Assembly: GCA_001898835.1 (NCBI GenBank)
Contig: MKVM01000003.1
Location: 661,852-725,851 of the forward strand
Source of the DNA: Micrococcales bacterium 72-143
Lineage (GTDB): Bacteria; Actinomycetota; Actinomycetes; Actinomycetales; Microbacteriaceae
Reading direction: 5' to 3'
DNA: 64,000 nucleotides
Below, piece after piece: positions 3,666 through 50,830 of the stretch. Below the pieces are notes generated by a model. That model did no database searches. It worked only from the letters and a program-made list of their open reading frames with translations, and was not told the DNA's origin. Position numbers and translations under genes: made by a program. How positions within the stretch are numbered: the stretch's first letter is position 1; every line of letters begins with the position of its first letter.

Positions 3666-3703
3666 ATCACAGTCCTCCATTTCAGAGACGAAGGAGTCTT
3701 TCG

Positions 3704-18977: not shown

Positions 18978-19393
18978 TGGACGAGTCGACGCCCCTGTTC
19001 GCGATCGCAGTCGCCGCGGAGCTCGCCGGCATGCACCCGCAGACCCTGCGCCAGTACGACCGGATGGGGCTCGTGAGCCCGCAGCGCACGGCAGGCAAGT
19101 CGCGCCGCTACTCGATGCGCGACGTCGCCCAGCTGCGTGAGGTCGCGCGGCTCTCCGCCGAGGGGCTCAACCTCGAGGGCATCCGGCGCATCCTCGAGCT
19201 CGAGAACCAGGTGTCCGCTCTGAGCGCCCGCGTGCGCGAGCTGGAGGCGGCGCTCGCCGACGAGCTGCTCGCCCGGCCCGGTCGCCGCGTCTTCGCGGCG
19301 GGCGCCGCCGGCGAGGTAGTGTCGTTGCGCGCCGGCGAGCGGCTCAAGCGGAATCAGGTGGTGGTGTGGCGACCCTTGGGGCCGGGCCGGTAG
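18977..19393 (+). CDS. hspR: heat-shock repressor HspR (MerR family)
   Basis: Repressor of the actinobacterial heat-shock regulon that binds HAIR sequences, with DnaK as co-repressor. The 138-residue protein begins with a MerR helix-turn-helix (LFAIAVAAELAGMHPQTLRQ, then YDRMGLVSPQRT), followed by the RRYS wing, a second helical pair (LNLEGIRRILELE) and a coiled coil at about 70-96. The C-terminal tail (about 100-138) is the HspR-specific segment. Its ATG shares one base with the dnaJ stop, so it is translated from the operon it represses. Matching HAIR operators are present before dnaK and before clpB. Confidence 0.96.
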   Translation: MDESTPLFAIAVAAELAGMHPQTLRQYDRMGLVSPQRTAGKSRRYSMRDVAQLREVARLSAEGLNLEGIRRILELENQVSALSARVRELEAALADELLARPGRRVFAAGAAGEVVSLRAGERLKRNQVVVWRPLGPGR

Positions 19394-21163: not shown

Positions 21164-21333
21164 TGCGTGCCTTTCGTGTGACGGCGACCTCCCTATGAGA
21201 TCTCCTTGGGGCATTTCTACACCCCGGCGGGCCGTCGCCGCGCCCGCGGCCGGGTGAACGGCGGGGGCGGGCGCGGCTGGATGATGACGCGCCATGAAAC
21301 TGGGACTCGTGCCGAGCGCCCGTCATCGTTAGC

Positions 21334-24300
21334 ATGAGCCGCAGCGCGGATGCGAGTGCCTTCCAATCCCCTGTCAGGCGCCCCCGATCCGTCCGTGCAC
21401 CCCAGATGAGCCCTGATGCCGTGAGCCACGGTGCGTCCGAGCGACGCGCTTTCGCCGCGCTCGCTGCGCTCGTCGCCGCGGTGGTCGCGGTCGCGACGAT
21501 GACGGGTGCGTCCGCTCCTGCCGCCGCCGCCGTCGTCGTCGAGGCGGAGCCGACCTCTGTCGGCCTGCCGCTCGGCCCCGTGGCTCCGCGGATCCCGGTG
21601 GTCGTCGCCCCCGCCGTGCCGGAGGCACCCGCCGTCGAGACCCCGGCTCCCGCGCCCGAGCCGGCCCCCGCGCCGCGCACCCGGGTCGTCGTGGTGACCA
21701 CGACGCCGGCCCCGAACCCCAACCCGGGCGGCACCTCGAACTGCGTCCTGCAGGTGACGGGCGGCGACGGCGGATCGGGTTCCTCGACGTCGTCCTCGAG
21801 CTCGACGAGCCGCACGCTCGTCTGCGGCCCCGGCACGGTCGGCCCGACCACGGTCGGCTCGTCGACCGGAACGGGCGGGACCGGCGGGACCGGGAACACC
21901 GGCGGGGCCGGGAACGCAGGCGGGACCGGGAACACGGGTGGCACCGGGAACACGGGTGGCACCGGGAACACGGGTGGCACCGGGAACACGGGTGGCACCG
22001 GGAACACGGGCGGGACCGGGAACACGGGCGGGACCGGCGACACCGGAGCCCCCACGACCCCCGGCGGCACCACCGATCCCGCGGGCGGCACCGACGACTC
22101 GGACGACCCGGCCGCGGCCGCCCCCGACTACTCCCTCCTCTCGCTCGGCGCTCCGGTCGCCTTCGCCGACGACCCCGCCGACACCGGCTCCCCGGACGCC
22201 TCCGCCCCGGACGCATCGGCCGCCCCCGAGCCCCTCGCGGACGGCCAGCCCTCCACCTTCGTCACGCTCGACGCGCCGGCCGCCGAGGACGACGACCCGC
22301 CCGCGCCCGCACCCCTCTCCGTCGGGAGCGCCGGCGCGAACGTCTCCATCACCGTCTCCGGCGACCAGCTCGTCGTGACGGTCGACGGCACGACGACGAG
22401 CACGCCGCTCGCCGAGATCGCGAGCCTCTCGGTCACCGGGGGCGTCATCAGCATCGGCGAGGGAGTGCTCGCCGCGCTCGCCGGCGTCGGCGCCCCGCTC
22501 GCCGTCACCGGCTCCGGGACGAGCAGTCTCACCGTCCACGGCGCCTCCGTCGGGTGGACGCTCGGCGCCTCCGGCTCGGGTTCGGTCACGATCGGCGCGA
22601 CCTCCTTCGGCTACACGGGGATCGCGACTGTCCAGGTCGTCGGCGCGGACGCGACGCTCACCCGCTCGGGCTCCTCGGCGGCGATCACCTGGACGGTCGA
22701 CACCGCGGGCGGGGGCGAGGTGGCCGGCATCCGGTTCAGCGGCTTCGCGCACCTCGTGGGTGCCGCGTCCGACGACGACGCATTCGTGGTCGACGTGGCG
22801 GCCGGCGGATCCGTCGCGACGGTCGACGGCGGCACGGGCGGCCACGACTCGCTCGAGCTGCGCGCGGCCGGTGGCCGGGTCGTCTCGGTGCCGAGCGGCG
22901 CCGACCAGGGCACCCTCTCCGGCGATGCCGTCTCGGTCGCCTACGACAACCTCGAGCCGCTGGCCGTCTCGGGCACCCCCGCCCAGGTCGCCGTCACGAC
23001 GACGACCGACGGCGACCAGCTGGAGGTCAGCCAGGACTCCGGCACCCACGAGATCACGGTGCGCAGCACGATCGGCTCGATGGAGACCGTCGTGCTCGTC
23101 GTGCCGACCGAGGTGTTCGAGATCCTCGCCTCCGCGCCGAACGTGACCGTCACCGTCATCGGCGACCTGTTCCTTCCGGGCGTGACCTTCCGCATCGTCG
23201 CCGCCCACATCCTCGTCGGGGCATCCGTCATCGACACGACCGGCACCGGCACCCCGGGCGACATCGAGCTGACCGCGGGCACCGCCCACGACGCCGACGC
23301 GAGCGTGGCGCTCAGCGGCTCCACACTGCGCGGCGGGGCGATCACGCTGAGTGCCACGGCGACCGCGACCCCCGCCCCGGCGGCGACGATCACGAGCTCC
23401 GCGCAGGCGAGCACCGTGCTCACGGACACCACCCTCGCCGCGACGGGCGACGTCACCGTGTCGGCCGCACTGCTCGCGACGATCGCCGCGAGCGACACTC
23501 CGGGCGCGGGCGGCACCGACGACACGGATGCGGCGCTCGCCTCCGCGACCGTCACGACCTCGGCGACGGCGCTCCTCACGGGCACGACCGCGGTGACCGC
23601 CACCGGCGTGCTCACGGTGCGGGCGCACAACACGACGAACGTCGCGGTCACCGCGGACGCCTCGGCCGCGACAGCCGGCGGCGCGATCGCCACCGCCGAC
23701 ATCACCGCGAGCTCCTCCGCCCGCATCGCGTCGTCCTCGGGCATCACGGCCGCCTCCGTCGCCGTCGACGCCGACACCACGGTCGACGCGCGGGTGACCG
23801 CGATCGCGAGCGCCGGCGGTGCGACCGCGAACGACGCGAGCCCCGACAGCACGACGGGCGGTGCGGCGCAGACCCCCGGCGGAACCCTCACGGTCGCGGG
23901 GGCGATCGCCAACCTCGCACTGACCCAGCGCTCCTCGGCCACGATCGCGCCCGCGGGCACCGCCGGGATCGTGGCGCCCGCCGGCGTCAGCGTGACGGCG
24001 GCATCGCGCGGCGGCTCCGTGTCGTCGGCCGACGGCAGCCCGGTGGCCGCCGGGTCGACGGGCGTCGGCGTCGCGGTCGCCGTCAACCGCAGCGACGTCG
24101 CGACCGAGGCGACCGTGACGGGCGGCCGCTACACGGCGTCCGCGTTGACTGTCCGCGCGGTCACGGCGCCGACCGTGTCGGGCGCCGCGAACGACTACGC
24201 GGCGACCGCCGTCTCCGGCGCGTCGAGCGGTTCCGGATCCGCGACCGCCGCTGTCGCCGTCGCGGGAGCCGTCGCGGTCTCCCTCGCCACGCTGGCCACC

Positions 24301-42300: not shown

Positions 42301-45300
42301 ATCGCCTCTGCGAAGGCGCGCGCCGGATCCGGCGGCGGGGTGAGCGGCGCGGGCTTCGTGGCCGACGCGCTCTTCTCCGCACCCGTCACCGCCGAGTTGC
42401 AGGGCACCGTCGTCGCGGGGACCGGTGACACCGGCGCCACGGCGTCCTCGCACCGCTCGGCGATCTCCTCGCTCTTCGCGGTCGGCGTCTCCGGTCTCGG
42501 CGTCAGCGTCTCCCGTGCACGGGCGCTCATCCTCGCGACCGCCGCGACCACCGCGCGGGTCTGGAACGGCACCGTCACGACGGGCGGCGCCGTCGTCGCG
42601 ACCGCCGTGTCCACGCAGACCGCCGACGTCGACACCGACACGATCGCGATCGCGCTCGGCGGCGCATCCGTCACCCTGCCGACCGCGCGCATCTCGGCGG
42701 CCACCACGGCGAGCCTCGAGAACCCCACCACGAGCGTCGGCGGACGGTTCGAGGCGACCTCGCACAACCACGCGACGGTCGACGCGAACTTCGTCAGCAT
42801 CACGGGCGTCGGCTTCTCCGACGCGGGGGCCGTGGCCGTCGTCGACGCCTCGGCCAAGACGGAGGCCACCGTCCTCCTCGCCGGACAGCGCTTCGACGCC
42901 GGTGCGGGCGACGTGACCATGACGATCGGCGCCGACAACCTCGTCCACGCCTCGGTCGACCAGGGCAGCGGCGGCGGGCTCAACGTCAACCTGCTCACGA
43001 CCACCGCGACGCTCGACGCCCTCACCCGGGGGTACATCGCCGCGGGCACCGCTGTCAGCCGCGGCTTCTCCCTCGTGAACACCACGACCTCGCTCGTCGA
43101 GGCCGACGTGACCCTGCTCTCGATCGCCTTCGCGAGCGGCTCGGGGCTGAAGGCGACCGCCGTGCAGACCGGCAACGCCGACACGATCGCGGAGGTCGCG
43201 ATCGGCGGCGGCGGGCTCACCGCGAGCGGCACGGTCGTCGTCTCGGCGGACGCGACCAACACCGTCCACTCCGCCCTCACCACCCAGGGCGGCTCGGTGA
43301 TCCGCGGCGAGTCGACGATCGTCACGAGCGAGGGCCGCTCCGCGACCCGCGCCACCTTCGACGGCTCCGTGCTCGACTCGACCGGGGCCACGGTCTCGGC
43401 GGACGCCGACAACACCGCCACGGCTGACCTCACCAAGCGCGGCGGCAGCCTCGCGGAGGTCGCGCACGTGCAGGCCGGCGCCCAGCTCTACGCCGAGGCG
43501 GAGACCGCGGCACGCTTCGGGACCGGGGCGCTCGTGGTCCGCAGCGGCGGCGACGTCCTCGTCTCGGCCGAGGCCCGCAACACGACGAACGTCACCACCG
43601 ACTCGCTCGCCGCCGGCCTCGTCGGCGTCGGCGCGGGCCAGCCGACGTCTCAGATCGACAACCCGACGACCGCCGAGTTCCAGGGCCGGCTGAGCGGCGG
43701 CGCGACCGTCGGCATCCGCGCGGTCGCGGCGAACACGGCCACCATCCGCGGCGGCGGCCTCGCGGCGGGCCTCGTGGGCGTCTCGACGCTGCAGCCGCTC
43801 GCGAAGATCTCCTCTACTGCCAAGGTGACCGCGACGCTCGCCGCCGCCGCCCGGATCTCCTCGCCGCTCGCCGCGGTCTCGATCCGCGCCGAGAGCCGCA
43901 ACACCGCGACCGCGCGCGCCGGCGCCGTCGGGGCGGGATTCGTGGGCGTCGACGCGGCCGACCCGAAGGCCCGCATCGAGAACCTCACGGCCGCCTACGT
44001 CTGGGGCGACATCCGCGGTGCCGCCGACACCGTCCCCGGCGCGAAGAGCCTCGAGGTGGTCGTCGCGGGCATTGACCTCGCGACCGCGACGCTCAGCTCC
44101 ACGGGCGGCGGCGTCGTGCGGGCCGGCACCGGGTCTGCCCGCGCCGAGGTCGACAGCGACGTGACCCTCGAGCTCGGCCGCGCGGCGGCGGGCTCCGTGC
44201 CGGCCGGCGTGATCGTCGTGGACGGCGCGATCACCCTCACCGCCAACCAGACCCCGGGCGCCGTGTCGGCGACCGAGAGCGAGGGCGGCGGCGCCGTCAA
44301 CGTCGACACCAACTCGGCGAGCGTCTCCAACACCCCTGACCTCCGCCTCGAGATCCTCGACGGCACAAAGGTCACCGCGACGGGCTCCATCGCCCTCACC
44401 ACCGGCTACAACGTCAACGCGCCCGCCGTGCCCGACCCGAGCCGCTACTTCCAGGGGGTCGACGCGGGCACCGACCGCATCACCCTCACGGCGAAGCACG
44501 GCTTCAGCACGGGGATGACGGTGACCTACACGAGCGGCGGGGGCGCGGTCACCGGCGGCCTCGCCGAGGGCCTCGCCGCGAACGTCATCGTGGTCGACGA
44601 GTACACGATCATGCTCGGCAGCGAGTTCGAGGGCGCCCAGGTCGACGCGGGCACCAACGTCATCCGCTTCGGCCGCACCTACAGCTACACCGACGGCACG
44701 GGAGCCCACACCGTCTTCACGCCTCTCCCGCACGGGTTCACCGAGGGCCAGCGCGTCGTCTACCGCGCCAACGGGGCGAGCATCCCCGGCCTCGTCGACG
44801 GGCGCGCCTACCTCGTGCACGTCGTCGACGACACGGGCATCCAGCTGTTCGACCCGAACGCGCCGATGACGCCGCTCGTGCTCATCGTGGCGCACATCGA
44901 CGATACCGCCGACCCGGACGACCCGGACGACCCGGTCGACACGATCGGCGCGAGCAACTCGTACACCGACGGTCAGATCGTCATCTACCACGCACCCGCT
45001 CCCGCCGCGAGCTTCCAGGGCGGCTACGTCGACCTGCAGGTCGACGCCGGCGGCAACCTGGTACGCAACGGCACGAACTTCGTCACCGAGAACAACGACA
45101 CCATCTACCTCGGCGCGCACGGCTTCGCGACGGGCACCGAGATCGTCTACAGCTCGGGCACCGCCGCCCCCATCCCGGGGCTCGTCAACGGCGCCCACTA
45201 CTGGGTGATCCGGGTCGACGCGAACCGCATCCGGCTCGCCGACAGCTACTGCCGCGCGATGGGAGCCGCGGGCGGTGCCGTCTGCATCGTCGGCTACAAC

Positions 45301-48300
45301 GACTGGGACGAGCTCGTCGGCTACAACGACTGGGATGAGACGGTCGGCACCGACGGCAACGGCGTCCCGATCGTCGTGCACCACCACGATCCGATCTACG
45401 TGCACCACCACGACCCGATCTACGAGACCGTGACCGCCCTGCCCATCTCGGCGTCGGTCGGCGATGCCGAGCACAAGCTGTTCCGCATGGACCAGCGGCC
45501 GATCGACGGCCTCGTCGACGGCGGTCAGTACTACGTGATCAACGCGAGCGCCGACTCGTTCCAGGTGTCGGCGACGAAGGGCGGTCCGGCCATCGACATC
45601 TCCGTCGCCGGCCGCTGGATCCTCGACCTCATCGGCTCCTTCGTCTCCGGCCCCGTCGACCTCGACGCGGGCACCGGCACGGGACGCCTCGTGCTCGATC
45701 TCGGCGCCTTCGGCTCCTCGGCCGAGAAGCTCACCCCCATCGGCGCGAGCGAGCCGGTCCCCGCGGGCTCCTACACGACCTCCGCGACGGTTCGTTCGTC
45801 GGGCGGTGGCGCCGTCAACGTCGGCAAGGCGCGCACCTCCTCGTACGTCGACGCCGACATCGACATCATCATCGGCGCGGGCGCGCGCATCACGAGCGGC
45901 GCCGACGAGGCGATCACCGACACCGGCAGCTTCACCATCACGACCGACGCCTACGGCGACAGCCAGGCGCTCTCCACCAACGGCGGAGGCGGTCTCGTCT
46001 CGGTCGGCAACGCGCGCGCCGAGTCGACCGTCTACGTCGACACCGTCATCACGATCAAGACGGGCGCCGTGCTCACCTCCGGATGGGACCTCGTGATCCG
46101 CCCGGTCACGCGCGGCAACGTCACCGGCACGGCGTCGTCGAGCCAGGGCGGCCTCGGGGCCGGGGTGTCGGCGGAGGCGAACGGCGTCGTCGACCTGCAG
46201 ACGACCGTTGACGTCGACGGGTCCCTCATCGCCGAGCACCTGCTGACGATCGCCGGCTACGCGCAGCCGAACGGCAGCCTCGATGCACGTGCGAACGGCG
46301 CGGGCCTCGGCGCCGACACCTCCGGCAACGACTGCGGCAACTCCTGCCGCCTCTACGCACACGCGCAGGTCGACATCGACGTGGCGGGATCGACGACCGT
46401 GCTGCAGGGCGACGAACTCCGCATCATCGCCGTCATGGGCACCGACGCGGCGGGCAACCGCGGCAAGCTCACGTCCTACGCCTACAGCAAGGCGAAGGCG
46501 CTCGGCGCCGACTCGGACGCGACCGCCCGCATCGACATCGACGGCGGAGCGAACATCGTCTTCCACAGCGGCGTCCGCCTGACCGGCTGGGAGAGCATCC
46601 TGATCGCTGCGGAGACCCGCGACCTCGAGGCCAACGCGACCTCGAGCGCCAACTGCTCGTGCGGCGGCGGCGACACCGACTCGACCGCCCGCGTGTCGAC
46701 CTCGACCACGAGCAAGGTCACCGCCGAGCCCTCGGTGCTCGTGCAGACCTACCGCCTCGACGTCGAGAGCACCTACATCCAGGGCGGACGCGACGTGCAC
46801 GCACCCGCCGACGAGGCCTTCATCGACGGCGGCAGCCAGAGCGCGACCGCGCCGACGACCGGCAACCGGCCCATCGTCTGGGAGGCGGACGTCGTGCTGC
46901 ACGCCGCCGACCCGCAACTCGTCATCGACGCCAACGGCAAGATCCTCAAGTCGTACAACGTGGTCGCGCGGCACACCTCGGGCGGCACGGTCTACGCGGT
47001 CGGCGACCACGTCGACGCGGGCACCGTCTACGTCGACCAGATCGTCAACCTCGGCGGCGCGATCGCGAACTTCCGGATCAACGCGACCGGCATCGGCGGC
47101 GACCGCAACCTCACCGGCACCCGCGGCACCTTCCAGCTCCAGCCGACGTTCGACTTCGTGCACGTCTACAACTGGTCCGACCGCAGCATCCGGCTGTCCG
47201 GCATCGACGTCGTCAACCTCGTGAACCTCGCCGCCACCGTGAGCGAGTGGGCCTACAACGAGGCCACCGTCTTCCGGTACACGATCCGCAAGGCGGACTT
47301 CGTGCGCACCCACGTGCGGGTCGTCAACTACCCGGCGGGCGGCGCGTCGAACGACATCGTGCTCGCCGGTGAGATCTACAACCCGATTGGCGACGTGCTC
47401 GTCGACAACGGCAACGGCGACATCGTGTCGCAGAACCCCGGCGCCCTCGACATCGTCGCGAACGACGTCACCCTGTCGGCGCGCTCGGGCTCGGTGGGCG
47501 TGCTCGGGTCGACCCCCGCCAACCGGGTCGGCATCGCGGTGCGGCTCATCGAGTACCGCTCGGGCGCGACCGGCGCGGAGCTCATGCATCCCATCGCGAT
47601 CTCGCTCGAGGCGGCTCACGACCTCGTGGTCGACCTGCAGGCCTACCGCCGCAGCACGCAGACCGGGGCCCTCACCTGGACCATCGGCCGGATCGTCGCG
47701 GGCGGCACCGTCGACATCGCGGTGCTCGACAGCGCCGTCAGCACGACCGCGGCCGCTTTCCTCGGCCACGAGATCCAGGACGACGTGTACGACGCGCCGG
47801 GCGCCTCCTACGGCGGGCTCCTCTCGCCGCCGAACGGTCCGTCCGGGCGCTACTCCGTCTACTTCTTCAGCGGCAGCTACGGCGCGCCCCTCGACCAGCT
47901 GCCCGGTGGTGGCGGCTACTCCTTCGACGACGCCGTGCTCATCGCGTTCGACACCGACCCGGCCCACGCCGTGGCGACCGCGAGCGCCTACGTGTTCACC
48001 GACGTCCGGGCGGGGGAGGTGATCTCCATCCACCACGACTCGACGGCGACGGTCATCACCCTCACCGTGACGAGCGACGTCGACGCCGACCTCCCGAACC
48101 CCTACGTCACGGGCGCGTGGTGGTCGCAGAGCAACGGCAGCGGCCGGATCGACCTGTTCACGAACGGCTGGATCCGGGAGCACGAGACCACGGGCGACAT
48201 GCTCGTCGGCACGATCGAGTCGACGGGCGACGACGTCACGCTGCTCGCCGACGATGCGCTCGCCTCGATCGTCGACGCGACGGGTGACGCGGACGCCGAC

Positions 48301-50736
48301 GTCATCGGCACCCACCTGACGATGACGGCGAACGGCACGATCGGCGCGGCATCCGACCACCTCGAGATCCGCTCGTCGAACGCGGCGCGCGGCTGGGTCG
48401 TGGCTCGGGCACCGCACGGCATCTACCTCGACCAGACCACGGGCGACCTCGTGCTGCGCACCGTCACGGCGACCAGCTCGGGGATCGCGACCGGCGACGT
48501 GTCGCTCACCGCGCTCGACGGCTCGATCGTCAACGAGGTGAACGATGCGACCGCGCGCGTGGTCGGCGTCTCCATCGACCTGTTCGCGACGGGCGGTCAC
48601 ATCGGCAGCGCGGACGGCTCCGCCGACATCCGCATCGACACGGCCGTCGCCGGGCGCCTCGTCGCCGAGGGCGAGGACGGCGTGCACGTGACCGAGACGA
48701 GCGGCCCGCTGACCCTGCTGCTCGCCGCTTCGTCCGCGGGCAAGGTGCGCATCACCGTGCCGTACGCGGCGGGCCGCACGGACGCCGACCTGATCCTGCA
48801 GGCCACGGGCGACACGGTCGACGGCTCCCGCACGATCGCCGTGGGCGGGGCGGACGCCGCGGGCACCGTGGAGCTGCGCGCCGGGAACGACGTGCTCGCG
48901 CCGCTCGGCACCCGCATCCGAGGCGACCGCGTGACGGTGCGCACCGCATACGGGCAGAACCCGCTCGCCCCGGTCGGCACGACCGCGTACTTCGGCGGCG
49001 AGCTCACCGCGACCGGCGCCGTGCCCTACATCCAGGTCTTCGGCGGCAACGCGCGCGACGAGGTGACGTTCTTCGAGACGGTGATCGACGGGCACACGAC
49101 GGTCTACGGCGGGGCCGCCGCGGCGACCTCCGGGAACGACGGCGACGACCTCGTCACGCTCACCCGCATCACGATCGTCCCCGGGGTGCACGCGGGCGAC
49201 GGCGGCGACGACTTCGACGGTCTCGACGTGCCGAACTCCCTGCGGGTCGACGGGCAGAACGGTTCCAACCACGTCGAGGTGACCCTGTGGGGCATCGACG
49301 ACCCCGACCACCACGAGACGCGCATCGAGGTCGTCGGCACGGGAACCGACCCGCTCGCGATCAACACGCTGACCGTCAACGCCTCGGACGGGAACGACGT
49401 CGTGCTGCTGCGCGCCGTGACGCAGCTCGCCGGGCTGCCCGCGCGGCGTCCCGCGGTCGTCGCCGTCGCGAGCGGCGACAGCACGGTCGAGCGCGTCGCC
49501 TACGACCGCAGCGTGAACGGCAAGCTCACGGTCAACGGCCTGGACGGCGACGACCGCTTCGTGCTCGACGACACGAGCGCGCCCGCCACCATCAACGGCG
49601 GCGACGGCGACGACACCTTCCTCGTCGGCCAGTTCTACCTGAACCCGCGCACGGCGCCCTACGTCGACGCGCTCGACGCATTCGCGACGACCCTCACCGA
49701 CCTGGGTTACCTCAGCAACGGCGTGAGCCGCCCGGCTGTGCTCTACGGTCAGGCGGGCAACGACCGCTTCGTCGTGAGCTCCAACCTCGCTGAGCTCCGC
49801 CTCGAGGCGGGCACGGGCGACGACGAGTTCGTGTTCATCACGAGCACCGTCACCGACACGAGCGGCCCGGACCCCGTGACGGCCCCCGTCGGCCAGGGCT
49901 TCGTCTCGATCGACGCGGGCACCGGGCACTCGACGATCGTCGTGGAGGCGAGCGATCCGACCGCCGTGAACGTCGCCCCGGTGCTGCAGGACGTGCTGTG
50001 GTGGACCGTGAGCGGCCTCGGCCTCGCGCTCGACCTCTACGGCTTCGCGGAGTACCCGGCGATCGCCCTGCCGCAGCCGGTCGCGCAGCCCTACGGGCTG
50101 CCGGGAGAGACGGATGTGCGCCTGATGTTCCGTGCGCTCGCGGCCGACATCACGCCCCCCTACGTGTTCCTCGGCCGCGGTGGCGACGGGCTCGTCATCA
50201 TCACCGAGACCGGTGGCTGGACGAACGTCTCGCCGGCGGGGCCGCTCACCGACTCCTACACCGTGCGCCTCTCGCGCGCCGCGACGGCGACCGTCTACAT
50301 CACCTTCACCTCCGCCTACGGCGCGGGCACCCCGTTCGCCGAGTTCTCCATCGACGGCGGCCTCACCTGGGTGCTGCGTGCGGTGCTCGCCATCGCGGCG
50401 GGCGACACCTCGGCGCACACCGTGCTCGTGCGGTGGGCCGGCGCGGTCAACACGCTCGCCGACCTCCCGCCGGGGGCGAGCGTCGTGACCATCAGCCACA
50501 CGGTCGCGAGTGCGGATGCCGACTTCGACGGCACCGACGTGCGGAACGTCTACGTCAACCTCTTCAAGGATGCCTTCCTCGAGCCGACCGGCGGTGAGCC
50601 GGGCGGGCCGGGCGACCCCGGTGACCACCTCGCGCCGACGGGAGCATCGCCGCTGCAGCTCGCGCTCGTGGCGCTCCTCACGCTGCTCCTCGGCGCCGGA
50701 TCGCTGCTCCTCGCGCGCCGTCGTCGCCTCTCCTGA
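21334..50736 (+). CDS. giant repetitive cell-wall-anchored surface protein (9800 residues)
   Basis: One open frame of 29.4 kb, roughly 0.9 MDa by estimate. In order it shows: a signal peptide (hydrophobic core about residues 40-60, cleavage near 65); a Pro/Ser-rich spacer; a collagen-like Gly-X-Y stalk (181-240); a second spacer; an array of about eleven 370-435-residue Ala/Val/Gly/Thr-rich repeats (about 850-5170); shorter 75-100-residue repeats of the same beta character (about 5170-7690); modules of the form HGF-GxxVxY-GGLxxGxxYxV; a His-rich tandem duplication; an RTX-like GGDGDD segment (about 9237-9500); and LAPTG (9766-9770), a hydrophobic helix and ARRRR. LAPTG fits sortase E. The role is probably adhesion or a wall layer, by analogy with large beta-repeat proteins. 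ATG 21406 (residue 25) is an alternative start; neither has a clear Shine-Dalgarno sequence. Confidence 0.86.
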   Translation: MSRSADASAFQSPVRRPRSVRAPQMSPDAVSHGASERRAFAALAALVAAVVAVATMTGASAPAAAAVVVEAEPTSVGLPLGPVAPRIPVVVAPAVPEAPAVETPAPAPEPAPAPRTRVVVVTTTPAPNPNPGGTSNCVLQVTGGDGGSGSSTSSSSSTSRTLVCGPGTVGPTTVGSSTGTGGTGGTGNTGGAGNAGGTGNTGGTGNTGGTGNTGGTGNTGGTGNTGGTGNTGGTGDTGAPTTPGGTTDPAGGTDDSDDPAAAAPDYSLLSLGAPVAFADDPADTGSPDASAPDASAAPEPLADGQPSTFVTLDAPAAEDDDPPAPAPLSVGSAGANVSITVSGDQLVVTVDGTTTSTPLAEIASLSVTGGVISIGEGVLAALAGVGAPLAVTGSGTSSLTVHGASVGWTLGASGSGSVTIGATSFGYTGIATVQVVGADATLTRSGSSAAITWTVDTAGGGEVAGIRFSGFAHLVGAASDDDAFVVDVAAGGSVATVDGGTGGHDSLELRAAGGRVVSVPSGADQGTLSGDAVSVAYDNLEPLAVSGTPAQVAVTTTTDGDQLEVSQDSGTHEITVRSTIGSMETVVLVVPTEVFEILASAPNVTVTVIGDLFLPGVTFRIVAAHILVGASVIDTTGTGTPGDIELTAGTAHDADASVALSGSTLRGGAITLSATATATPAPAATITSSAQASTVLTDTTLAATGDVTVSAALLATIAASDTPGAGGTDDTDAALASATVTTSATALLTGTTAVTATGVLTVRAHNTTNVAVTADASAATAGGAIATADITASSSARIASSSGITAASVAVDADTTVDARVTAIASAGGATANDASPDSTTGGAAQTPGGTLTVAGAIANLALTQRSSATIAPAGTAGIVAPAGVSVTAASRGGSVSSADGSPVAAGSTGVGVAVAVNRSDVATEATVTGGRYTASALTVRAVTAPTVSGAANDYAATAVSGASSGSGSATAAVAVAGAVAVSLATLATLAAITGDVVLLAPDAEVAIAARAATKVRAAASPKAAVAGQTAGVGASVALGELTGTTTAELADGAGLAGAHGLSITADAAMASETTAAGGATGTGVSVAGATAIGVSALATTARIGTGAPLTVTGDVSVTADQRAPVTTTATGAAESGDAAVGLALALAFVDHTVRATVLRDVTAGGVIVIRVTGATGATTTAEASAGGAPAEGAADQQGAGSSLADARQYASSQGTGGSTLPATPSPSTPAGTVSVAAAIAVTLLTSVADASVAGVHLAAPAVTLEARHHDLAESTATGQPADRGPPGVTIGAGIAITDADVVITASTGSGTTIDADALTLVAGVDSSTATGDPATAHRFAATSVAGAGSGGTLGLAGSLALAIVHLATTASAGGAIDLDLDGDGVAGSLAVIAVSRAVTVADAKAAKGAGGSTVGLGASVAVASVAHRTIAELAPTAQFAATSLAGGAIAVSADTSDTTTSRAAGAAAGTGVAVAGYAATTVSTVVTTARIAAGAALATGASVTVAATQSATAAAIADGSTAGGTAAIGAGLALVLAGHDVVATVARPVSAASATLSAAGTSTTTASATASTAGAEPTTGGAGGAGDGVDQQLSGQAGHASSLGGGAAPALPSASTSSGGVDVAAAVALVVAAVSVTAGPSGAGTLATTGALAISATSTTTASSTADGSATAPGGASVGAAVALTDLDLTTAATAGSGTVGSLTVTADATTTLGATSTAGASGGSISVAGSVALLLAELTTTAELGGVLVLAGGTGDVEVRAGSTTTATATAGSSDGVAGSSVGIGGSAAVAVVDDLTAARILDGAALTGARAVTIAAAGTGSVAVVARMGATGGGVAVTPAVATARVTQTTLARLGSGATLVASGAVAVTASQDATVSATAGATASGGQVGVGLALGLVLADLDVTAALARSLAAAGDVTLSATGLADLDASGTASTAGADGETSSGPDGKGAAGDGVDAAVAKERTHADGLSTSGAPGATPSASTSQGGVSIAAAVGVVVARVQAQALLEPGVVTIGGVAVTIASALQTDAASVADGSTTAPGAAGIGAAVALTKLDAVNRAILPAGVTVTADSLRVAATVAADGADTVSQLGASASAGAGAGKVSIAGSVGIAIVDSATTARVDGAVVLTGALTVVAAGSLTTTVTALPAVDGVSGESVGVGASAAIAIVTDAVSASIASGATAQAGAVEVTATSDSTAKATARIGASGGSVSVAPAVATTLHTARTSATIGAGALLGAASLSLTATQTATAEATATAGAAAGNAAIGVALGLAIGDHEVTASLARTVRATGAVAIAATGSSHVTGSATASSGGADTGSGGSTVDGQIAQEKDHAAGLAGPGASNPDAPSASTSKGAVGAAAAVGVALSTATVTAVILAGGRVEAASLTLVASGEADAASAGTGSAAGGSSVAIGAGVAVTLATTRATAELAGSARAGSITVEATSPAGSELAAHATAGAAGGVSIAGSVAIAVVDRVTRARLSGSAETTGAGELRISASSEAAVEATAVPADSGAAGTGAVGVGAAFALVILDESTLAELANGATATLTGALTLDAAATTAAATTATMGAAGSVGLAPAAAVTLSTVEARARIGTGAVLAIPGAVTVRARTTAGSAATADAAATGSTAAVGLALGLASGTHAARTELARSLAGAGAVVFQATAVSDVTASGTASAGGGEEAADADTEVAGKKGVDKEIAAERGHADDVAGAQGVAGSGASETPGAETSEGPVSAAAAVGVALSTVTAEALFTGSVSIVTTGAVTLDTAVNADAAATGDGSSTGGSASIGAGLGLVLARTVNRAVVPVGLAVTASGLTLRAGVADVGGDTTSTVTARSVAGAAGDVSFAGSLAIALVDHTTTAALESSVTLAGGDLVLDTDAAVAATATALPAGDGSVGGSVGIGAAVALVVLDVATESVLRGGVGVTGARDIALAADTTSSGSASARIGASGGVAVAPAVGIVLSTVTTRATIGTGGALAPGRDLSLAATQHATATAAGGASATSSGSAAVGIALGLVLATHEAAATLQRVVNAGRDLSLAATSISSASATGSASAGGAPAEGDPGAPDTTTPVDGKTGVDKQVAGQRGFADGVAGHNGMQTSGAAEPPSAATSDAPIAVAAAVGVVVSTVTARTVIDTMVPTLSAGGTVRLTTRAAADAASTADGSSTSPDGSASIGAGVALTLSELRNLAVVPATVVITAHGLEARAELAPDGGDDASTVAATASSGAAGKVSVAGSAAIALIDHQTVARVLGTLDLRGGDLLLSASSALVATVKALPVGAGSTASGSVGVGISFAFALVDDATTAEIGDGVAVTGARDVTLEATAASATSAEARMGAAGGGVTVTPAVALVLSNVSAVARVGAGALALGGSLRVASALHASASTTAGAEATGASSAAVGIGLGLTIATHSSLATLARNVVAGAALTLSATAVSAVSATGAASASGAPAETPADTSDADNDGKTGVDETVGAQRDHADTVAADRHLSGSGSTATPSAETSGGSVAVAAAVGIALSTVTARTDITSAVTSIEAGTAVTLASALNADVASAADGSATDGASAAIGAGVALSYAKHRNEAIVPATLTVRAHDLVVSATVAVDGADDTATITAAASSGAAGGVSVAGSVALVIVDQLTRAAVEGTVIASGGDVAITAASKVAATATALPVGAGSTSTGSVGIGVSFAFILLDDEVIAEVGDGVSITGARDLLLDASTRSSATAEARMGAEAPGSSGGSGGSGGSGSGSGRSSSGVAVVPAVALVLSNVTTTARVGTASGAPFAVARDLVIRATQHASATATGGATATAGSVAVGIGLGLTIAPHGATATLARNASAGRDIRLLATAISSASATGQASAAGAPEEETQDSDADGKGRKGVDKSVGSQRDYADSAATKNGVKGSGSAATPNAETSGGAVAIAAAVGVVISTVTVEAGVTSDVTLLDAGRTVELASAANADAASAADGSATDGGNAAIGAGVALTLAKVSNRAVIPAWLLVTATNLVLSATVAADAADHTATATAASTAGAAGGFSVAGSVAIVIVDQDAVAAVYGTVALNGGDLTATAASDLAVTVTALPAADGVSGKSVGIGVAFGLALVTDDVHALLADGVSVTGARDVTLAASAVVVSSVEARMGAAATNTSSSGGTGGTGGTGGSGSSGGVAVTPAIAIVISNITTDARIGLAAVDGAGAPVPLELTGSLTLTATQDATAGTTAGAKASASSAAIGVGLGLTIANHGALAELAREVDAGADITLRASSRSVATAAGEASASGNAPKGDEDNEDAKERTGVDKEVGTQRDYADTASTKYGAAGSGTAKSPNAKTSDGGVSIAAAIGIVISTVVVTSRVTTDVTLLTAGGTVTLASSANTDATSAADSSATQPASSGSGSGGGSGGTGGSGGSGSSSVAVGAAVALTISNVTNRSEVPAWLTVRAHALVVSATVTIVGTDDTSTVGAASASGAAASVSVAGSVAIAIVNQESYAGISGIVELTGGDATVTAASRLVSTVAALPVGRGAVTTGGSVGVGVSFALNLVLDETTAAIEADAVLTGAHNLTMSASARVDASTEARMGAAIVSSGSGSGGTGGTGGSGGSGGSGSSGGAAVAPSIAVTSSDVKTTVRIASLTGANLIELTGSLSAVATQRASVVTKATAEATGGSSASVGVSLALTLADHAVLARTDRNVTAGGGIEFGAVGSSHSESSAEASASGAKGKADNAGETAPSSQGTVGDKLGTQRTFANSTSASNGGKGVRNSSTNPGAKSSDGEVTVAAAIALTIADVSAIAELPDELTLTAGGAVVLRASQNADAISTADGTAVHATSAGIGAAVAINVLDLVNRAGLGQNTTVVANGFTASATMTDVDGDRVHTVTSTSESGAGSTDVAVAGSFALNVVTAQTQAVIPSTAVVDAGTGDVVLRAENLRADTATAKADAALAKSGKTGVGASVAINPVLDNVTRAEIEDGAVITGGHDVTIEAISADTVTTTVKAGSAGSSAAVSPAVGITIVQHTTIARIGSSAATWTVGGSIVVRARHDGSTTTTGDAKAVGDGVAVGAIIAVNVVDISTTAETLRSLSASGSITLAAHTATVAVAEAEASAQGKAIAGATESNSDEQAQNQVDNTPSTQGKGITLPSSSTQVNNGNSTANTQGGKKSDGVGLGAAVTVNWVTIDTLARIPADLTITAGGSVGVLAENGVSATAKATGTALKLPSGGGNSPNIGAAVALNYVDVVDRGMIGDRVVIHAGDTVSVTANTPSGLRNDFIAWGIAAAGGSGAGVAGSVAVQVLLLRNEATIGQDVAITTDGGVLLSASNPMGLQSVAASGALSTSSAGVGAGIVVNVIDTDTIARIGSTTSHPVTIDARGAISLSAISGIVALAVDPILGFAIPDVTAVALGGAASGSSAAVGGALIVDVVSITTRAELGDGASINQTVGSLPGQSLSLVAHDDTEFVELAGAIGLSAGSAGVGFALLVDVFNKDVRAVIGSNVRATVGGSVLVEAIARESFTMLAAGAAAASSAGVTGSFVVLIVNQGADSGTRAQILGGQATPSIVEAGGNMTLTAQDDVRDSLLFAGGVAAGGTAGVGVSTVVLVRTGKVDAGIAEYDRVVAKGSSGLSITATQSEDFEAIAVAGAAGGTAGVAGSATVAVHDNTTHAHIDRGVVVNGDNLGAMATQGVAVRASDRTTSLGAAGQLALGGTAGVGAGADVQVITKDTRAWIAPGAAVAANGNVTVDADSFEKLTSISAGGSGGGTVGVAVNAAVSVIDVTTRATVGEECAAANATASGCASSRTTVYAGGSVRIAANDALELDIIAGSLAVGGVAGVGAAAAVPVITKETVAFIGDNSIVRGLGQLGSGIRVSTGGFLVDPVDTRFTPQSAVQSDNQTIQLGYTHGLRDGQTVVYDAGGGTAIGGLTSGDSYVVHVVSPTAVRLSPVGGGAIITLVKGAATGQSHRLVDGRAAGLPASESPYFDPKAAGAVSGTTITLPYTLTPALQSGDSVIYSSGGGAPIGGLVDGGSYYVKVTGSGIQLTTQKCLTESSVPAGCTGTFIALDAAVSSGRGHSIVKQGAQPSPDPAATSGVRTVTPDADDDFVGVAVTATSSDDIAGVGVSAAISGTAGVGVGGSVNVVTNRTLAFVGRIAQVTAGSAGHPASVIVAAGHELSMLMVSAVAAGGTAGVGVSATVGVVDLDTDAELRQGAVVTSTADTVVAAHGRESMVAVAATASGGFVGVAGAVTVIVLDVHTHATLQRVTVDAGGSVVVDASDDTSIVVVAGGAAGGFVGVGIGVGVTSATKDTQAFVAAGAVIDADGAADPVGGILTGGFGGSAFGDFGLRPGFAGVAVQARSTQDVFGLTVALGAGAVGVAGAVTTTLLTVTTRAVVDSSASAPTRINLSSTPGAAQSVSITAANASRTLTVAGGIAAGAVGVSGGVDVGILAVSTQAYVGPSASIRVARDFSLSALASASITSFGLSVAGGAVGVAGAVSVWTFGTEAQDGYGDGNSNASALSPDGNDVRDDADATASGQGSHGYTSILQGAGSNTGSKADSHVGSAVGSANGGVAASTPGASLVGAAFSASDLPRGTSATIAADVVIVAGRDVAVRAEEANDYLGVAGAAAVGAGALGGSVAIANLRSNVDAGVSARVSITAGGNVAVAAVTTERTTGMAFAGAAGGVTLSGQFLVLNSDAVQTAHIDDTAVIPHAGGVVSADATADRRIEALGVGVGVGGVAIGAAVVITSPTGDTTARIGKVSIGAAGASGGLRVAASSTIDVPVRVYAVNAGLVGGVTAAGGVAPISGRTSATFDGTAILTGGATISATGRHTASVFMISVATGAYSAGASYATATISRDTVATLTANAIITAAGAVAVRANTRNAAQVSTNGGNLSGMGFSVMTPTATVSGATDALALGRIRGSGSVAVSATGQNRAVADAVLVAVSILGGGAGLQVTATVTQTARILARLASAETVVSSGGVLVSAAEATDGAGESIASAKARAGSGGGVSGAGFVADALFSAPVTAELQGTVVAGTGDTGATASSHRSAISSLFAVGVSGLGVSVSRARALILATAATTARVWNGTVTTGGAVVATAVSTQTADVDTDTIAIALGGASVTLPTARISAATTASLENPTTSVGGRFEATSHNHATVDANFVSITGVGFSDAGAVAVVDASAKTEATVLLAGQRFDAGAGDVTMTIGADNLVHASVDQGSGGGLNVNLLTTTATLDALTRGYIAAGTAVSRGFSLVNTTTSLVEADVTLLSIAFASGSGLKATAVQTGNADTIAEVAIGGGGLTASGTVVVSADATNTVHSALTTQGGSVIRGESTIVTSEGRSATRATFDGSVLDSTGATVSADADNTATADLTKRGGSLAEVAHVQAGAQLYAEAETAARFGTGALVVRSGGDVLVSAEARNTTNVTTDSLAAGLVGVGAGQPTSQIDNPTTAEFQGRLSGGATVGIRAVAANTATIRGGGLAAGLVGVSTLQPLAKISSTAKVTATLAAAARISSPLAAVSIRAESRNTATARAGAVGAGFVGVDAADPKARIENLTAAYVWGDIRGAADTVPGAKSLEVVVAGIDLATATLSSTGGGVVRAGTGSARAEVDSDVTLELGRAAAGSVPAGVIVVDGAITLTANQTPGAVSATESEGGGAVNVDTNSASVSNTPDLRLEILDGTKVTATGSIALTTGYNVNAPAVPDPSRYFQGVDAGTDRITLTAKHGFSTGMTVTYTSGGGAVTGGLAEGLAANVIVVDEYTIMLGSEFEGAQVDAGTNVIRFGRTYSYTDGTGAHTVFTPLPHGFTEGQRVVYRANGASIPGLVDGRAYLVHVVDDTGIQLFDPNAPMTPLVLIVAHIDDTADPDDPDDPVDTIGASNSYTDGQIVIYHAPAPAASFQGGYVDLQVDAGGNLVRNGTNFVTENNDTIYLGAHGFATGTEIVYSSGTAAPIPGLVNGAHYWVIRVDANRIRLADSYCRAMGAAGGAVCIVGYNDWDELVGYNDWDETVGTDGNGVPIVVHHHDPIYVHHHDPIYETVTALPISASVGDAEHKLFRMDQRPIDGLVDGGQYYVINASADSFQVSATKGGPAIDISVAGRWILDLIGSFVSGPVDLDAGTGTGRLVLDLGAFGSSAEKLTPIGASEPVPAGSYTTSATVRSSGGGAVNVGKARTSSYVDADIDIIIGAGARITSGADEAITDTGSFTITTDAYGDSQALSTNGGGGLVSVGNARAESTVYVDTVITIKTGAVLTSGWDLVIRPVTRGNVTGTASSSQGGLGAGVSAEANGVVDLQTTVDVDGSLIAEHLLTIAGYAQPNGSLDARANGAGLGADTSGNDCGNSCRLYAHAQVDIDVAGSTTVLQGDELRIIAVMGTDAAGNRGKLTSYAYSKAKALGADSDATARIDIDGGANIVFHSGVRLTGWESILIAAETRDLEANATSSANCSCGGGDTDSTARVSTSTTSKVTAEPSVLVQTYRLDVESTYIQGGRDVHAPADEAFIDGGSQSATAPTTGNRPIVWEADVVLHAADPQLVIDANGKILKSYNVVARHTSGGTVYAVGDHVDAGTVYVDQIVNLGGAIANFRINATGIGGDRNLTGTRGTFQLQPTFDFVHVYNWSDRSIRLSGIDVVNLVNLAATVSEWAYNEATVFRYTIRKADFVRTHVRVVNYPAGGASNDIVLAGEIYNPIGDVLVDNGNGDIVSQNPGALDIVANDVTLSARSGSVGVLGSTPANRVGIAVRLIEYRSGATGAELMHPIAISLEAAHDLVVDLQAYRRSTQTGALTWTIGRIVAGGTVDIAVLDSAVSTTAAAFLGHEIQDDVYDAPGASYGGLLSPPNGPSGRYSVYFFSGSYGAPLDQLPGGGGYSFDDAVLIAFDTDPAHAVATASAYVFTDVRAGEVISIHHDSTATVITLTVTSDVDADLPNPYVTGAWWSQSNGSGRIDLFTNGWIREHETTGDMLVGTIESTGDDVTLLADDALASIVDATGDADADVIGTHLTMTANGTIGAASDHLEIRSSNAARGWVVARAPHGIYLDQTTGDLVLRTVTATSSGIATGDVSLTALDGSIVNEVNDATARVVGVSIDLFATGGHIGSADGSADIRIDTAVAGRLVAEGEDGVHVTETSGPLTLLLAASSAGKVRITVPYAAGRTDADLILQATGDTVDGSRTIAVGGADAAGTVELRAGNDVLAPLGTRIRGDRVTVRTAYGQNPLAPVGTTAYFGGELTATGAVPYIQVFGGNARDEVTFFETVIDGHTTVYGGAAAATSGNDGDDLVTLTRITIVPGVHAGDGGDDFDGLDVPNSLRVDGQNGSNHVEVTLWGIDDPDHHETRIEVVGTGTDPLAINTLTVNASDGNDVVLLRAVTQLAGLPARRPAVVAVASGDSTVERVAYDRSVNGKLTVNGLDGDDRFVLDDTSAPATINGGDGDDTFLVGQFYLNPRTAPYVDALDAFATTLTDLGYLSNGVSRPAVLYGQAGNDRFVVSSNLAELRLEAGTGDDEFVFITSTVTDTSGPDPVTAPVGQGFVSIDAGTGHSTIVVEASDPTAVNVAPVLQDVLWWTVSGLGLALDLYGFAEYPAIALPQPVAQPYGLPGETDVRLMFRALAADITPPYVFLGRGGDGLVIITETGGWTNVSPAGPLTDSYTVRLSRAATATVYITFTSAYGAGTPFAEFSIDGGLTWVLRAVLAIAAGDTSAHTVLVRWAGAVNTLADLPPGASVVTISHTVASADADFDGTDVRNVYVNLFKDAFLEPTGGEPGGPGDPGDHLAPTGASPLQLALVALLTLLLGAGSLLLARRRRLS
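21874..22053 (+). repeat. collagen-like Gly-X-Y stalk with 18-bp tandem DNA repeats
   Basis: Twenty consecutive Gly-X-Y triplets, mostly alternating GGT and GNT, encoded by 18-base units. Several central units are identical at every base, which suggests recent expansion by slippage. No proline occurs until the last triplet, so if it forms a triple helix it does so without hydroxyproline, as in bacterial collagen-like proteins. Confidence 0.85.
23880..36830 (+). repeat. array of about eleven long protein repeats
   Basis: Each unit begins with an AAAVGVALSTV-like strand, passes through ADGSAT, VSVAGSVAI, TALPVGAGS, EARMGA, TPAVA and VGIGLGL motifs, and ends with a charged linker of the form GVDK-V-QR-AD. 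Linkers start near 24914, 26095, 27202, 28309, 29418, 30577, 31741, 32968, 34206, 35518 and 36688, giving spacings of about 1.11 to 1.31 kb. Units in the second half (30.5-35.5 kb) look most alike. Confidence 0.85.
36831..44400 (+). repeat. shorter degenerate beta repeats of the giant protein
   Basis: After the last linker, the unit shortens to roughly 75-100 residues built around A-G-V-G/A-G-V-A turns, a T-x-A-x-I strand and a G-x-V-x-V-x-A strand (for example GGTAGVGVSTVVLV). Two HGF/GGL modules interrupt it at 38.98-39.54 kb. Past about 42.6 kb the repeat changes again to a form containing SIxNxTTA-like strands. Boundaries are approximate. Confidence 0.65.
45289..45426 (+). repeat. tandem peptide duplications, including a His-rich pair
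   Basis: VGYNDWDE occurs twice with a 27-base period (from 45289 and 45316), and VHHHDPIY occurs twice with a 24-base period (45376-45423). The copies are nearly identical in DNA. Six histidines and four aspartates in this stretch could bind metal. Confidence 0.85.
49041..49830 (+). repeat. RTX-like Asp/Gly-rich segment
   Basis: Imperfect GGxGxD-type turns recur (GNDGDDLVTL, GDGGDDFDGL, GGDGDDTFLVG, GQAGNDRFVV, GTGDDEFVF), each followed by a hydrophobic strand, as in calcium-binding beta-rolls. The spacing is irregular, so this is a loose RTX-like region and not a tight nonapeptide array. Confidence 0.65.
50629..50730 (+). other. LAPTG cell-wall sorting signal
   Basis: LAPTG at residues 9766-9770 is followed by a roughly 20-residue hydrophobic helix and RRRR, the classic tripartite sorting signal. 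LAXTG is the pattern recognised by class E sortases of high-GC Gram-positives. No sortase gene lies in the window. Confidence 0.85.
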
Positions 50737-50792
50737 CGGCCGAGGCACCGCATCCGAGATGCCCCGTGCATTTCGGCGCCCGCCGCGCTAAA

Positions 50793-50813
50793 CTTGAGTC
50801 ACCACAACTCAAG
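50793..50813. promoter_or_regulatory. perfect HAIR element with overlapping -10 upstream of clpB
   Basis: CTTGAGT-N7-ACTCAAG is an exact match to the HspR operator. TAAACT (50789-50794) overlaps its first two bases, the same geometry as at dnaK, and is the likely -10; no good -35 is visible. It lies 17 bases before the clpB ATG and 56 bases after the stop of the giant gene. Confidence 0.93.
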
Positions 50814-50830
50814 TCTTATTCCGGAGAATC

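What the first reader, a model, noticed from the sequence alone, without database searches (positions are those of the whole stretch)
21334..50736. A single 9800-codon surface-protein gene lies between two HspR-controlled chaperone loci
The frame is open for 29.4 kb and has a signal peptide at one end and a complete LAPTG sorting signal at the other, with coherent repeats throughout, so it is a real gene and not a chance frame. Very large beta-repeat proteins are known mainly from Gram-negatives such as Chlorobi and proteobacteria. A sortase-anchored version of near-megadalton size in a Gram-positive actinobacterium looks poorly described. The size would allow a fibre far beyond the cell wall.
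Basis: partly seen in the sequence, partly recalled or inferred. Interest (0 to 1): 0.9.

Follow-up and report, generated by a model that had tools for sequence, protein, structure and literature searches.

The report
Giant wall-anchored surface fibre protein
An actinobacterium carries one real gene for a 0.93-megadalton repeat protein that is probably exported and tied to the cell wall by one end, and related giants with the same end pieces but differently lengthened middles occur here and there in its family.

Summary
The frame 21334-50736 is one gene; the start shared with three congeners is ATG 21406, giving 9,776 residues (932 kDa). Openness proves nothing here: the antisense frame is open for 5,295 codons too. 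What proves the gene is conservation: 4 of 9 same-genus genomes (own included) hold an uninterrupted copy (9,623-10,101 aa) at the same site; no copy was found in the other 5. Architecture: signal peptide, low-complexity linker, 11 head-to-tail repeats of 369-439 aa, a degenerate repeat zone, a conserved end, then LAPTG, a hydrophobic stretch and RRRR; 95 hits of a ~55-aa unit, 64 in the large repeats. LAxTG is the class E sortase signal, and the genome has a class E sortase. The C-terminal profile matches 13 of 398 genomes and 7 of 85 genera sampled in the family. In 8 proteins from 4 genera the first, second and last repeats are orthologous, while middle repeats multiplied separately by lineage. 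No Pfam family matches; the only named match is the repeat model LktA_tand_53. Most likely a Sec-exported, class E sortase-anchored fibre for adhesion or aggregation. No fold prediction was obtained (server full), so 'beta-solenoid' is inference. New variant of a known kind.

The parts
21406..50736 (+). giant surface-protein gene, 9,776 codons (the ORF as given starts at 21334)
   Evidence: open frame; shared start and copies in G002, G003, G008; dN/dS below 1 in 29 of 30 region-pair comparisons
21330..21335 (+). TAGCAT, candidate -10 element overlapping the rejected ATG 21334
   Evidence: TAGCAT in three and TAGGGT in one of the four leaders; promoter function is inference
21406..21531 (+). 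signal peptide (about 42 residues)
   Evidence: basic start, hydrophobic core, AxA end; similar layout in the three orthologues; judged by eye, no predictor run
21532..23868 (+). Pro- and Gly/Thr/Asn-rich linker and N-terminal region
   Evidence: translation, 18-bp tandem repeat 21883-22037
23869..36768 (+). 11 head-to-tail large repeats of 369-439 aa (starts 23869, 25015, 26179, 27292, 28399, 29524, 30682, 31846, 33073, 34312, 35629)
   Evidence: iterated profile search
36769..45555 (+). zone of degenerate ~53-55-aa repeats; holds the best LktA_tand_53 stretch of the second half (right border chosen by me)
   Evidence: NF012206 67.8 bits over cut-off 50 for the second half; 28 unit hits
45556..50628 (+). 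conserved C-terminal region with RTX-like GGDGDDTF motifs (motif name recalled; no Pfam match)
   Evidence: alignments A1 (from 46234) and A3 (from 47734)
50629..50733 (+). LAPTG sorting signal, hydrophobic stretch, RRRR tail
   Evidence: counterparts in 12 of 12 ends read in the own family sample plus L054, in 0 of 3 read outside it
18977..19393 (+). hspR (context, left side of the slot)
   Evidence: NF047375, 140.7 bits over cut-off 105
50793..50813 (+). HAIR-type HspR box in front of clpB (context)
   Evidence: exact match; motif recalled
50831..53002 (+). clpB (context, right side of the slot)
   Evidence: TIGR03346, 1152.8 bits (cut-off 1232.1 not reached; match starts at model position 148)

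Best explanation
The gene makes a Sec-exported fibre protein of 0.93 MDa that a class E sortase attaches to peptidoglycan by its C-terminus. Some 95 copies of a 55-residue unit, about six to a large repeat, stack into a long rod that carries the N-terminal end away from the wall; the rod most likely serves attachment to surfaces or to other cells. Its length changes by gain or loss of whole large repeats in the middle of the array, while the first, second and last repeats stay fixed. Shown: one conserved gene, the repeats, fixed ends with an expanded middle, an LAxTG-type end, a class E sortase in the genome. Inferred: export, anchoring, the rod fold, adhesion.
For: Uninterrupted copies in 4 of 9 congeners, own included, all four between hspR and clpB. 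Signal-peptide-like start in those four, by eye. Sorting-type end in 12 of 12 ends read in the family sample plus L054: LAxTG in 9, IAATG in 1, LAxSG in 2. Class E sortase match in 21 of 21 genomes, above cut-off in 20 of 21; of 14 named control genomes 1 is above cut-off; the own one has 222.9 bits against 160. Class E enzymes recognise LAXTG (PMC5148588, passages). Unit profile: 95 hits in the protein; 10 shuffles gave 0 hits nine times and 1 once (the profile was trained on this protein). Repeat tree: r01, r02 and the last repeat each form one clade of 8 of 8 proteins (support 1.0, 0.994, 1.0), middle repeats group by lineage. dN/dS 0.31-0.56 in the large repeats.
Against: No structure prediction was obtained, so the rod is unproven. 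No adhesive domain is recognised: 0 Pfam families at E up to 0.1 over the whole protein. The Pfam anchor model is not met (1 of 11 C-termini, at E 0.73). Two of the four congeners have Ser for Thr in the motif (LAHSG, LAASG). Three more distant relatives whose ends were read have no such signal. Class E sortases are equally present in the 5 congeners without the gene, so the sortase is not specific evidence. First 400 residues: dN/dS 1.0 for G000-G003. No transcript or peptide data.
Confidence: 0.68

Rival explanations
1. It is a coat or matrix protein: the chain lies along or around the cell, or is shed, and forms an extracellular layer (desiccation or phage barrier) rather than a fibre pointing outwards.
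For: No recognised adhesive tip; very high Ala/Gly/Thr/Ser/Val content and acidic pI 4.5; the A. kunkeei giants are described as possibly loosely attached to the envelope (PMC12863079, passages).
Against: The sorting-type end (12 of 12 ends read in the family sample plus L054) argues for fixation at one point.
Confidence: 0.2
2. It belongs functionally to the HspR heat-shock programme, for instance as a stress-induced envelope protein made together with the chaperones on either side.
For: Lies between the dnaK-hspR and clpB units in 4 of 4 congeners that have it; a relative in Microbacterium sp. NIBRBAC000506063 ends 2,573 bp upstream of dnaK; no terminator-like site found in 50400-51000, between the giant gene and clpB (hardly any were expected by chance, mean 0.2).
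Against: No HAIR-type box before the giant gene; the same slot holds other genes or almost nothing in 5 of 9 congeners; none of the 12 flank stretches of six relatives in three other genera matched dnaK, grpE, dnaJ, hspR or clpB (the 5' stretches of G232 and G036 were still inside the giant gene, so 10 real flanks were seen).
Confidence: 0.08
3. It is a large secreted weapon or toxin, as the name LktA_tand_53 (leukotoxin family repeat) might suggest.
For: The only named family match is NF012206.
Against: The model is described as a tandem repeat of a filamentous protein, not a toxic domain; no other Pfam or NCBIfam match at E up to 0.1; wall anchoring does not fit release.
Confidence: 0.03
4. 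Artefact: chance frame, or repeats misassembled in one genome.
For: High GC leaves antisense frames open as well; the Microbacterium copy is broken into many frames, but so is its dnaK.
Against: Four separate assemblies with one-to-one repeat orthology, GC3 0.96 in the sense frame, conserved ends.
Confidence: 0.01

Closest known systems
NCBIfam NF012206 LktA_tand_53 (tandem repeat-containing filamentous protein)
   Same: 53-55-aa tandem unit; second half of the protein passes the curated cut-off; 38 of 40 double repeats match at E up to 0.1
   Different: first half below cut-off; sortase-type actinobacterial end; higher-order array of ~380-aa repeats
LEPR-XLL giant proteins of alphaproteobacteria (Pseudosulfitobacter, CDS of 38,757 bp; Pontibrevibacter, 31,812 bp)
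   Same: C-terminal region similar at 26.6% over 73% of the query, E 3e-47, and 27.3% over 24%, E 5e-17; comparable size
   Different: those have periplasmic-adaptor genes downstream (HlyD family directly; RND type one gene further); here a signal peptide and an LAxTG end, no adaptor among the flanking genes scanned, and no LEPR tetrapeptide in the protein
Mobiluncus mulieris 7,651-aa adhesin (PMC10619420, passages read)
   Same: actinobacterium, giant single chain, sortase signal (LPxTG)
   Different: 51 Ig-like domains with covalent cross-links; no Ig-like family was found here
Apilactobacillus kunkeei Giant1-5 (PMC12863079, passages read)
   Same: Gram-positive, 3,000-8,000 aa, extracellular, elongated repeats, purifying selection
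   Different: Giant1-3 alpha-helical rods and Giant4 an array of beta-sheet domains, Giant1-4 with an N-terminal beta-solenoid, an SH3b-like end common to all five; no sortase signal was mentioned in the passages read
Rhodococcus antarcticus plasmid protein WP_265385170.1 (6,747 aa)
   Same: 30.2% identity over 54% of the C-terminal query, 12 hits of the large-repeat profile, 1 near-full
   Different: no sorting signal at the annotated end; plasmid-borne, annotated as hypothetical

Membership tests
Class E sortase substrate (LAxTG) | LAxTG, hydrophobic stretch, basic tail at the C-terminus | tested here: met
   LAPTG + hydrophobic stretch + RRRR at 50629-50733
Class E sortase substrate (LAxTG) | motif kept in relatives | tested here: inconclusive
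   12 ends read in the family sample plus L054: LAxTG 9, IAATG 1, LAxSG 2; 3 ends read outside (G863, Rhodococcus plasmid, Pseudosulfitobacter) have none
Class E sortase substrate (LAxTG) | class E sortase in the genome | tested here: met
   21 of 21 genomes at E up to 0.001, 20 of 21 over cut-off; the one below is G863. The 21 include 5 congeners without the giant gene.
Class E sortase substrate (LAxTG) | Pfam Gram_pos_anchor match | tested here: not met
   0 families for the last 150 aa at E up to 0.1; 1 of 11 homologues at E 0.73. Pfam's model is not specific to class E signals (recalled), so this lowers the claim only a little.
Class E sortase substrate (LAxTG) | covalent attachment to peptidoglycan | not testable with these tools
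   needs proteomics
NF012206 LktA_tand_53 | score over the curated cut-off of 50 bits | tested here: met
   second half 67.8 bits; the first half has only 26.6; single units in the genome scan all under 50
LEPR-XLL type giant of Gram-negatives | LEPR-XLL signature | tested here: not met
   the letters LEPR do not occur in the protein; no NCBIfam match other than NF012206 at E up to 0.1
LEPR-XLL type giant of Gram-negatives | adaptor (HlyD-type) gene beside it, as in the two records read | tested here: not met
   none among the flanking genes scanned
Fibrillar adhesin with known domains | recognised adhesive domain plus stalk domains | tested here: not met
   0 Pfam families over both halves at E up to 0.1
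Ig-like cross-linked giant adhesin (Mobiluncus type) | Ig-like ester or isopeptide domains | tested here: not met
   0 Pfam families; no PDB sequence match to A1 or A2 at E up to 1
Beta-solenoid fibre | stacked beta coils in a structure or a confident model | not tested
   Structure prediction never accepted the job (and eleven later tries)

The most novel reading that the evidence does not exclude
A previously undescribed family of one-megadalton, class E sortase-anchored rods in which both ends of the repeat array are kept across genera and each lineage lengthens or shortens the middle by whole 380-aa modules: a wall-anchored fibre whose reach is set by module number. Its C-terminal part is shared with giants of Gram-negative bacteria that lie beside adaptor-type export genes, so the same giant body would have been fitted with two unrelated export and attachment routes.
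Probability: 0.4. Interest if true: 0.72.

Novelty: new variant of a known kind. Interest (0 to 1): 0.58.

Why it matters
It gives a conserved, comparable set of giant proteins with natural absence in close relatives. Several questions become testable: whether a class E sortase can anchor a 0.93-MDa chain, how Sec handles one, whether module number sets fibre reach, and how giant proteins move between Gram-negative and Gram-positive envelopes.

Tried and rejected
Chance frame: rejected, although openness as such was found worthless as evidence. ATG 21334 as start: rejected. Link to the neighbouring glycosyltransferase (19366-20781, weak SdgA-like matches): tblastn found it in none of the hspR-locus stretches of the other 8 congeners or in L054, so I drop the idea that it is a dedicated glycosyltransferase. 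Heat-shock function: see rivals. PDB sequence searches gave nothing useful. Plasmid search with two large repeats: no match. Pfam hits at E 0.3-0.9, and one at 0.098 to a relative, taken as chance. Self-BLAST of the whole chain returned no off-diagonal match, replaced by tiles. Paper searches for a description of this family: (open-licence PMC library only); no listed title or abstract start described one, and only the papers cited were opened (PMC8286594 also, passages).

Structure prediction was tried with A2 and never accepted: ('being made ready', wait twenty calls), then. The alignments A2 (40 of the 41 double repeats; one crossed a piece border) and A3 (11 C-termini) are ready for it.

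Full report
What is there. Window 21334-50736 (+) is an open frame of 9,800 codons. The window lies at G000:C3:661852-725851 of a 3.33-Mb, 99.93% complete genome in 6 contigs. I take the organism to be one of or near the Microbacteriaceae: the only relative found among named genomes is Microbacterium sp. NIBRBAC000506063 (lineage), whose DnaK is 79-89% identical in pieces. No call named the genus. Codon-position GC is 0.69/0.61/0.96 in the sense frame.

Openness is not evidence here. At GC3 0.96 the antisense frame of the same gene is open for 5,295 codons, in G002 for all 9,742, and in 50 codon-shuffled copies the longest open antisense stretch averaged 7,486 codons. The large minus-strand ORFs in the list (4,477 and 5,299 aa) lie in that antisense frame; its codon-position GC (0.96/0.61/0.69) is unlike that of identified genes such as dnaK (0.64/0.40/0.98).

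What shows that it is a gene. In the genus, 4 of 9 genomes (G000, G002, G003, G008) match the repeat family at E up to 0.001, with open frames of 9,812, 9,763, 9,646 and 10,124 codons from stop to stop. With the shared start the proteins are 9,776, 9,741, 9,623 and 10,101 aa. G002, G003 and G008 are one-contig assemblies. ATG 21334 sits in a TAGCAT element kept in the leaders (TAGGGT in G003); at that place the reading frame of the other three has a stop, and the shared start is ATG 21406. Nei-Gojobori dN/dS for 6 pairs and 5 regions (30 values) is below 1 in 29; in the large repeats it is 0.31-0.56, in the C-terminus 0.33-0.74. The exception is the first 400 residues of G000-G003 (1.0). dS is compressed by the codon bias, so these are rough.

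Anatomy. Signal-peptide-like start; Pro-rich and GGTGNT-type linker; 11 head-to-tail large repeats of 369-439 aa (11 in G002 and G003, 12 in G008); a zone of degenerate short repeats; a conserved C-terminal region (70, 69 and 80% identity over the last 1,500 aa); LAPTG, a hydrophobic stretch, RRRR. A 55-aa unit profile finds 95 hits in the protein, 64 of them in the large-repeat zone, roughly six per repeat; ten shuffled proteins gave 0,0,0,0,0,0,0,1,0,0 hits. The profile was trained on this protein, so the shuffles test composition, not training. Mass 932 kDa, pI 4.5. No Pfam family at E up to 0.1; the only NCBIfam match is NF012206 LktA_tand_53 (26.6 bits for the first half, 67.8 for the second, cut-off 50). 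No PDB sequence relative (one search listed two matches at E 0.24 and 0.82, taken as chance).

Anchor. Twelve ends were read in the family sample plus L054: LAxTG in G000, G002, G279, G232, G036, G110, G065, G330 and L054; IAATG in G133; LAHSG in G003; LAASG in G008. Three ends read outside have no such signal: the 13,159-codon frame of G863, the Rhodococcus plasmid protein and the Pseudosulfitobacter protein. The ends of G057, G076, G631, G675 and the second G863 frame were not seen. The window genome has four sortase-domain matches, one of class E over cut-off and one of class C (the other two were not classified there). Class E matches: 21 of 21 genomes, 20 over cut-off, including the 5 congeners without the giant gene; of the 14 named control genomes 3 match and 1 is over cut-off. 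In G008, the LAASG species, that model finds a single sortase, over cut-off for class E. PMC5148588 (passages) states that class E enzymes recognise LAXTG. LAxSG was not covered by what I read.

Place. In all four positive congeners the gene sits between hspR and clpB; in the five others the interval is 85, 608, 1,294, 1,329 and 3,453 bp, with a PLDc_N-type ORF in three of them and other ORFs in G004 and G007, and the C-terminal profile finds no copy elsewhere in those genomes. A tree of the five chaperone proteins puts G005 (absent) beside G008 (present) with support 0.993 and G002 with G003 (0.972); one further node has 0.987, the others 0.23-0.89, and L054 has 807 of 2,004 columns missing. 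Repeated loss fits best, since repeats are one-to-one orthologous and the site is shared; I did not test this formally. The giant proteins of G002 and G003 are less alike (59-66% in the three large regions) than G000 and G002 (67-72%), which does not match the chaperone tree and may be a rate effect or transfer.

Relatives. With the C-terminal profile at E up to 1e-10: 13 of 398 genomes sampled in the family, 7 of 85 genera, own included; 9 of 396 in the order sample, with G000, G330 and G057 already counted; at E up to 1e-8, 3 of 296 in the phylum sample, own included. With NF012206 at E up to 1e-6, 2 of 296 in the phylum sample, own included. Open frames reach 12,277 codons in the family sample and 13,361 in the order sample. 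Frames of G232 (7,014) and G036 (6,166) stop short while giant-like sequence goes on upstream, and G279 is in two short pieces on two contigs. The named-genome scan, which uses exact short patterns, found only L054. Plasmid records: 8 of 72,556 match the C-terminus, among them LEPR-XLL proteins beside adaptor genes and a Rhodococcus plasmid protein; none match two large repeats.

Fixed ends, expanding middle. I aligned 99 near-full repeats from 8 proteins of 4 genera. In a midpoint-rooted FastTree tree (clades of 3-9 leaves printed) the first, second and last repeats each form a clade holding 8 of 8 proteins (support 1.0, 0.994, 1.0). Within the window's genus each of r01-r11 forms a clade of the four species (0.989-1.0), G008 having one extra copy that joins r07. 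Between genera the middle repeats group by lineage: G330 r03-r10 (0.986), G110 r05-r12 (0.964), G065 r08-r11 with G133 r10-r12, two species of one genus (0.998). In the six proteins compared, neighbouring copies are most alike in the middle (up to 0.94 in G110) and least at the two ends (0.32-0.41). Full arrays have 11, 11, 11, 12, 13, 13, 14 and 14 modules (in six of the eight, one search lists one more near-full hit far outside the array, which I leave out). This is the pattern of internal duplication between conserved caps.

How it most likely works. Sec export, sortase cleavage in LAxTG, covalent link to peptidoglycan, and a rod of stacked units that carries the N-terminal part outwards. 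If each 55-aa unit made two to three coils of 0.48 nm, about 9,000 residues would span some 150-240 nm; this is arithmetic on recalled solenoid geometry, not a result. The alternating small-hydrophobic pattern of the unit (GSVGVGAAVAVALVDVTTTARIGGGATLTAGGDVTVTATA) suits beta strands. No model was obtained.

Compared with what is in print. Giant surface proteins of Gram-positives exist in print: the 7,651-aa Mobiluncus adhesin (Ig-like domains, LPxTG, passages) and the A. kunkeei giants (passages). A survey of huge proteins (PMC11573180, passages) says that the four most frequent domains of its list are NRPS ones, with the biggest share from Actinobacteria. I found no description of this family in the searches named under Tried and rejected, which cover open-licence PMC papers only. 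Hence 'new variant of a known kind'.

Noticed in passing
50831-53002 (+): ClpB of 723 aa without the N-terminal domain: the TIGR03346 match starts at model position 148 of 853; the congeners' copies align from residue 1 at 93-98% identity (G001's copy is split in two pieces, G006's holds one TGA).
   Followed up: partly
3212-9934 (+): 2,240-aa ORF with eight Big_4 stretches, ricin-B-type lectin, 3-keto-disaccharide hydrolase and a weak HypBA2 match: perhaps a large surface glycosidase.
   Followed up: no
19366-20781 (+): GT4-type glycosyltransferase with matches far below cut-off to adhesin glycosyltransferases SdgA/SdgB, between hspR and the giant gene only in the window genome among the congeners' stretches searched.
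   Followed up: partly
19394-50830 slot; L049-L053: The hspR-clpB interval is variable across the genus: 85 to 3,453 bp without the giant gene, with different ORFs in G004 and G007.
   Followed up: partly
L113-L116 (G863): Two neighbouring giant frames of about 11.7 and 13.2 thousand codons on one contig of a distant actinobacterium; the second has no LAxTG-type end.
   Followed up: partly
L066, L069 (G057): Two separate giant frames of 11,102 and 12,277 codons in one genome.
   Followed up: no
L094, L096, L097: Giants of two other genera (G065, G330) both lie beside ORFs that look like sucD and purN (names recalled from the sequences), a second recurrent site.
   Followed up: no
21883-22037: 18-bp tandem repeat, 8.6 copies, coding GGTGNT, in the linker after the signal peptide.
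   Followed up: no
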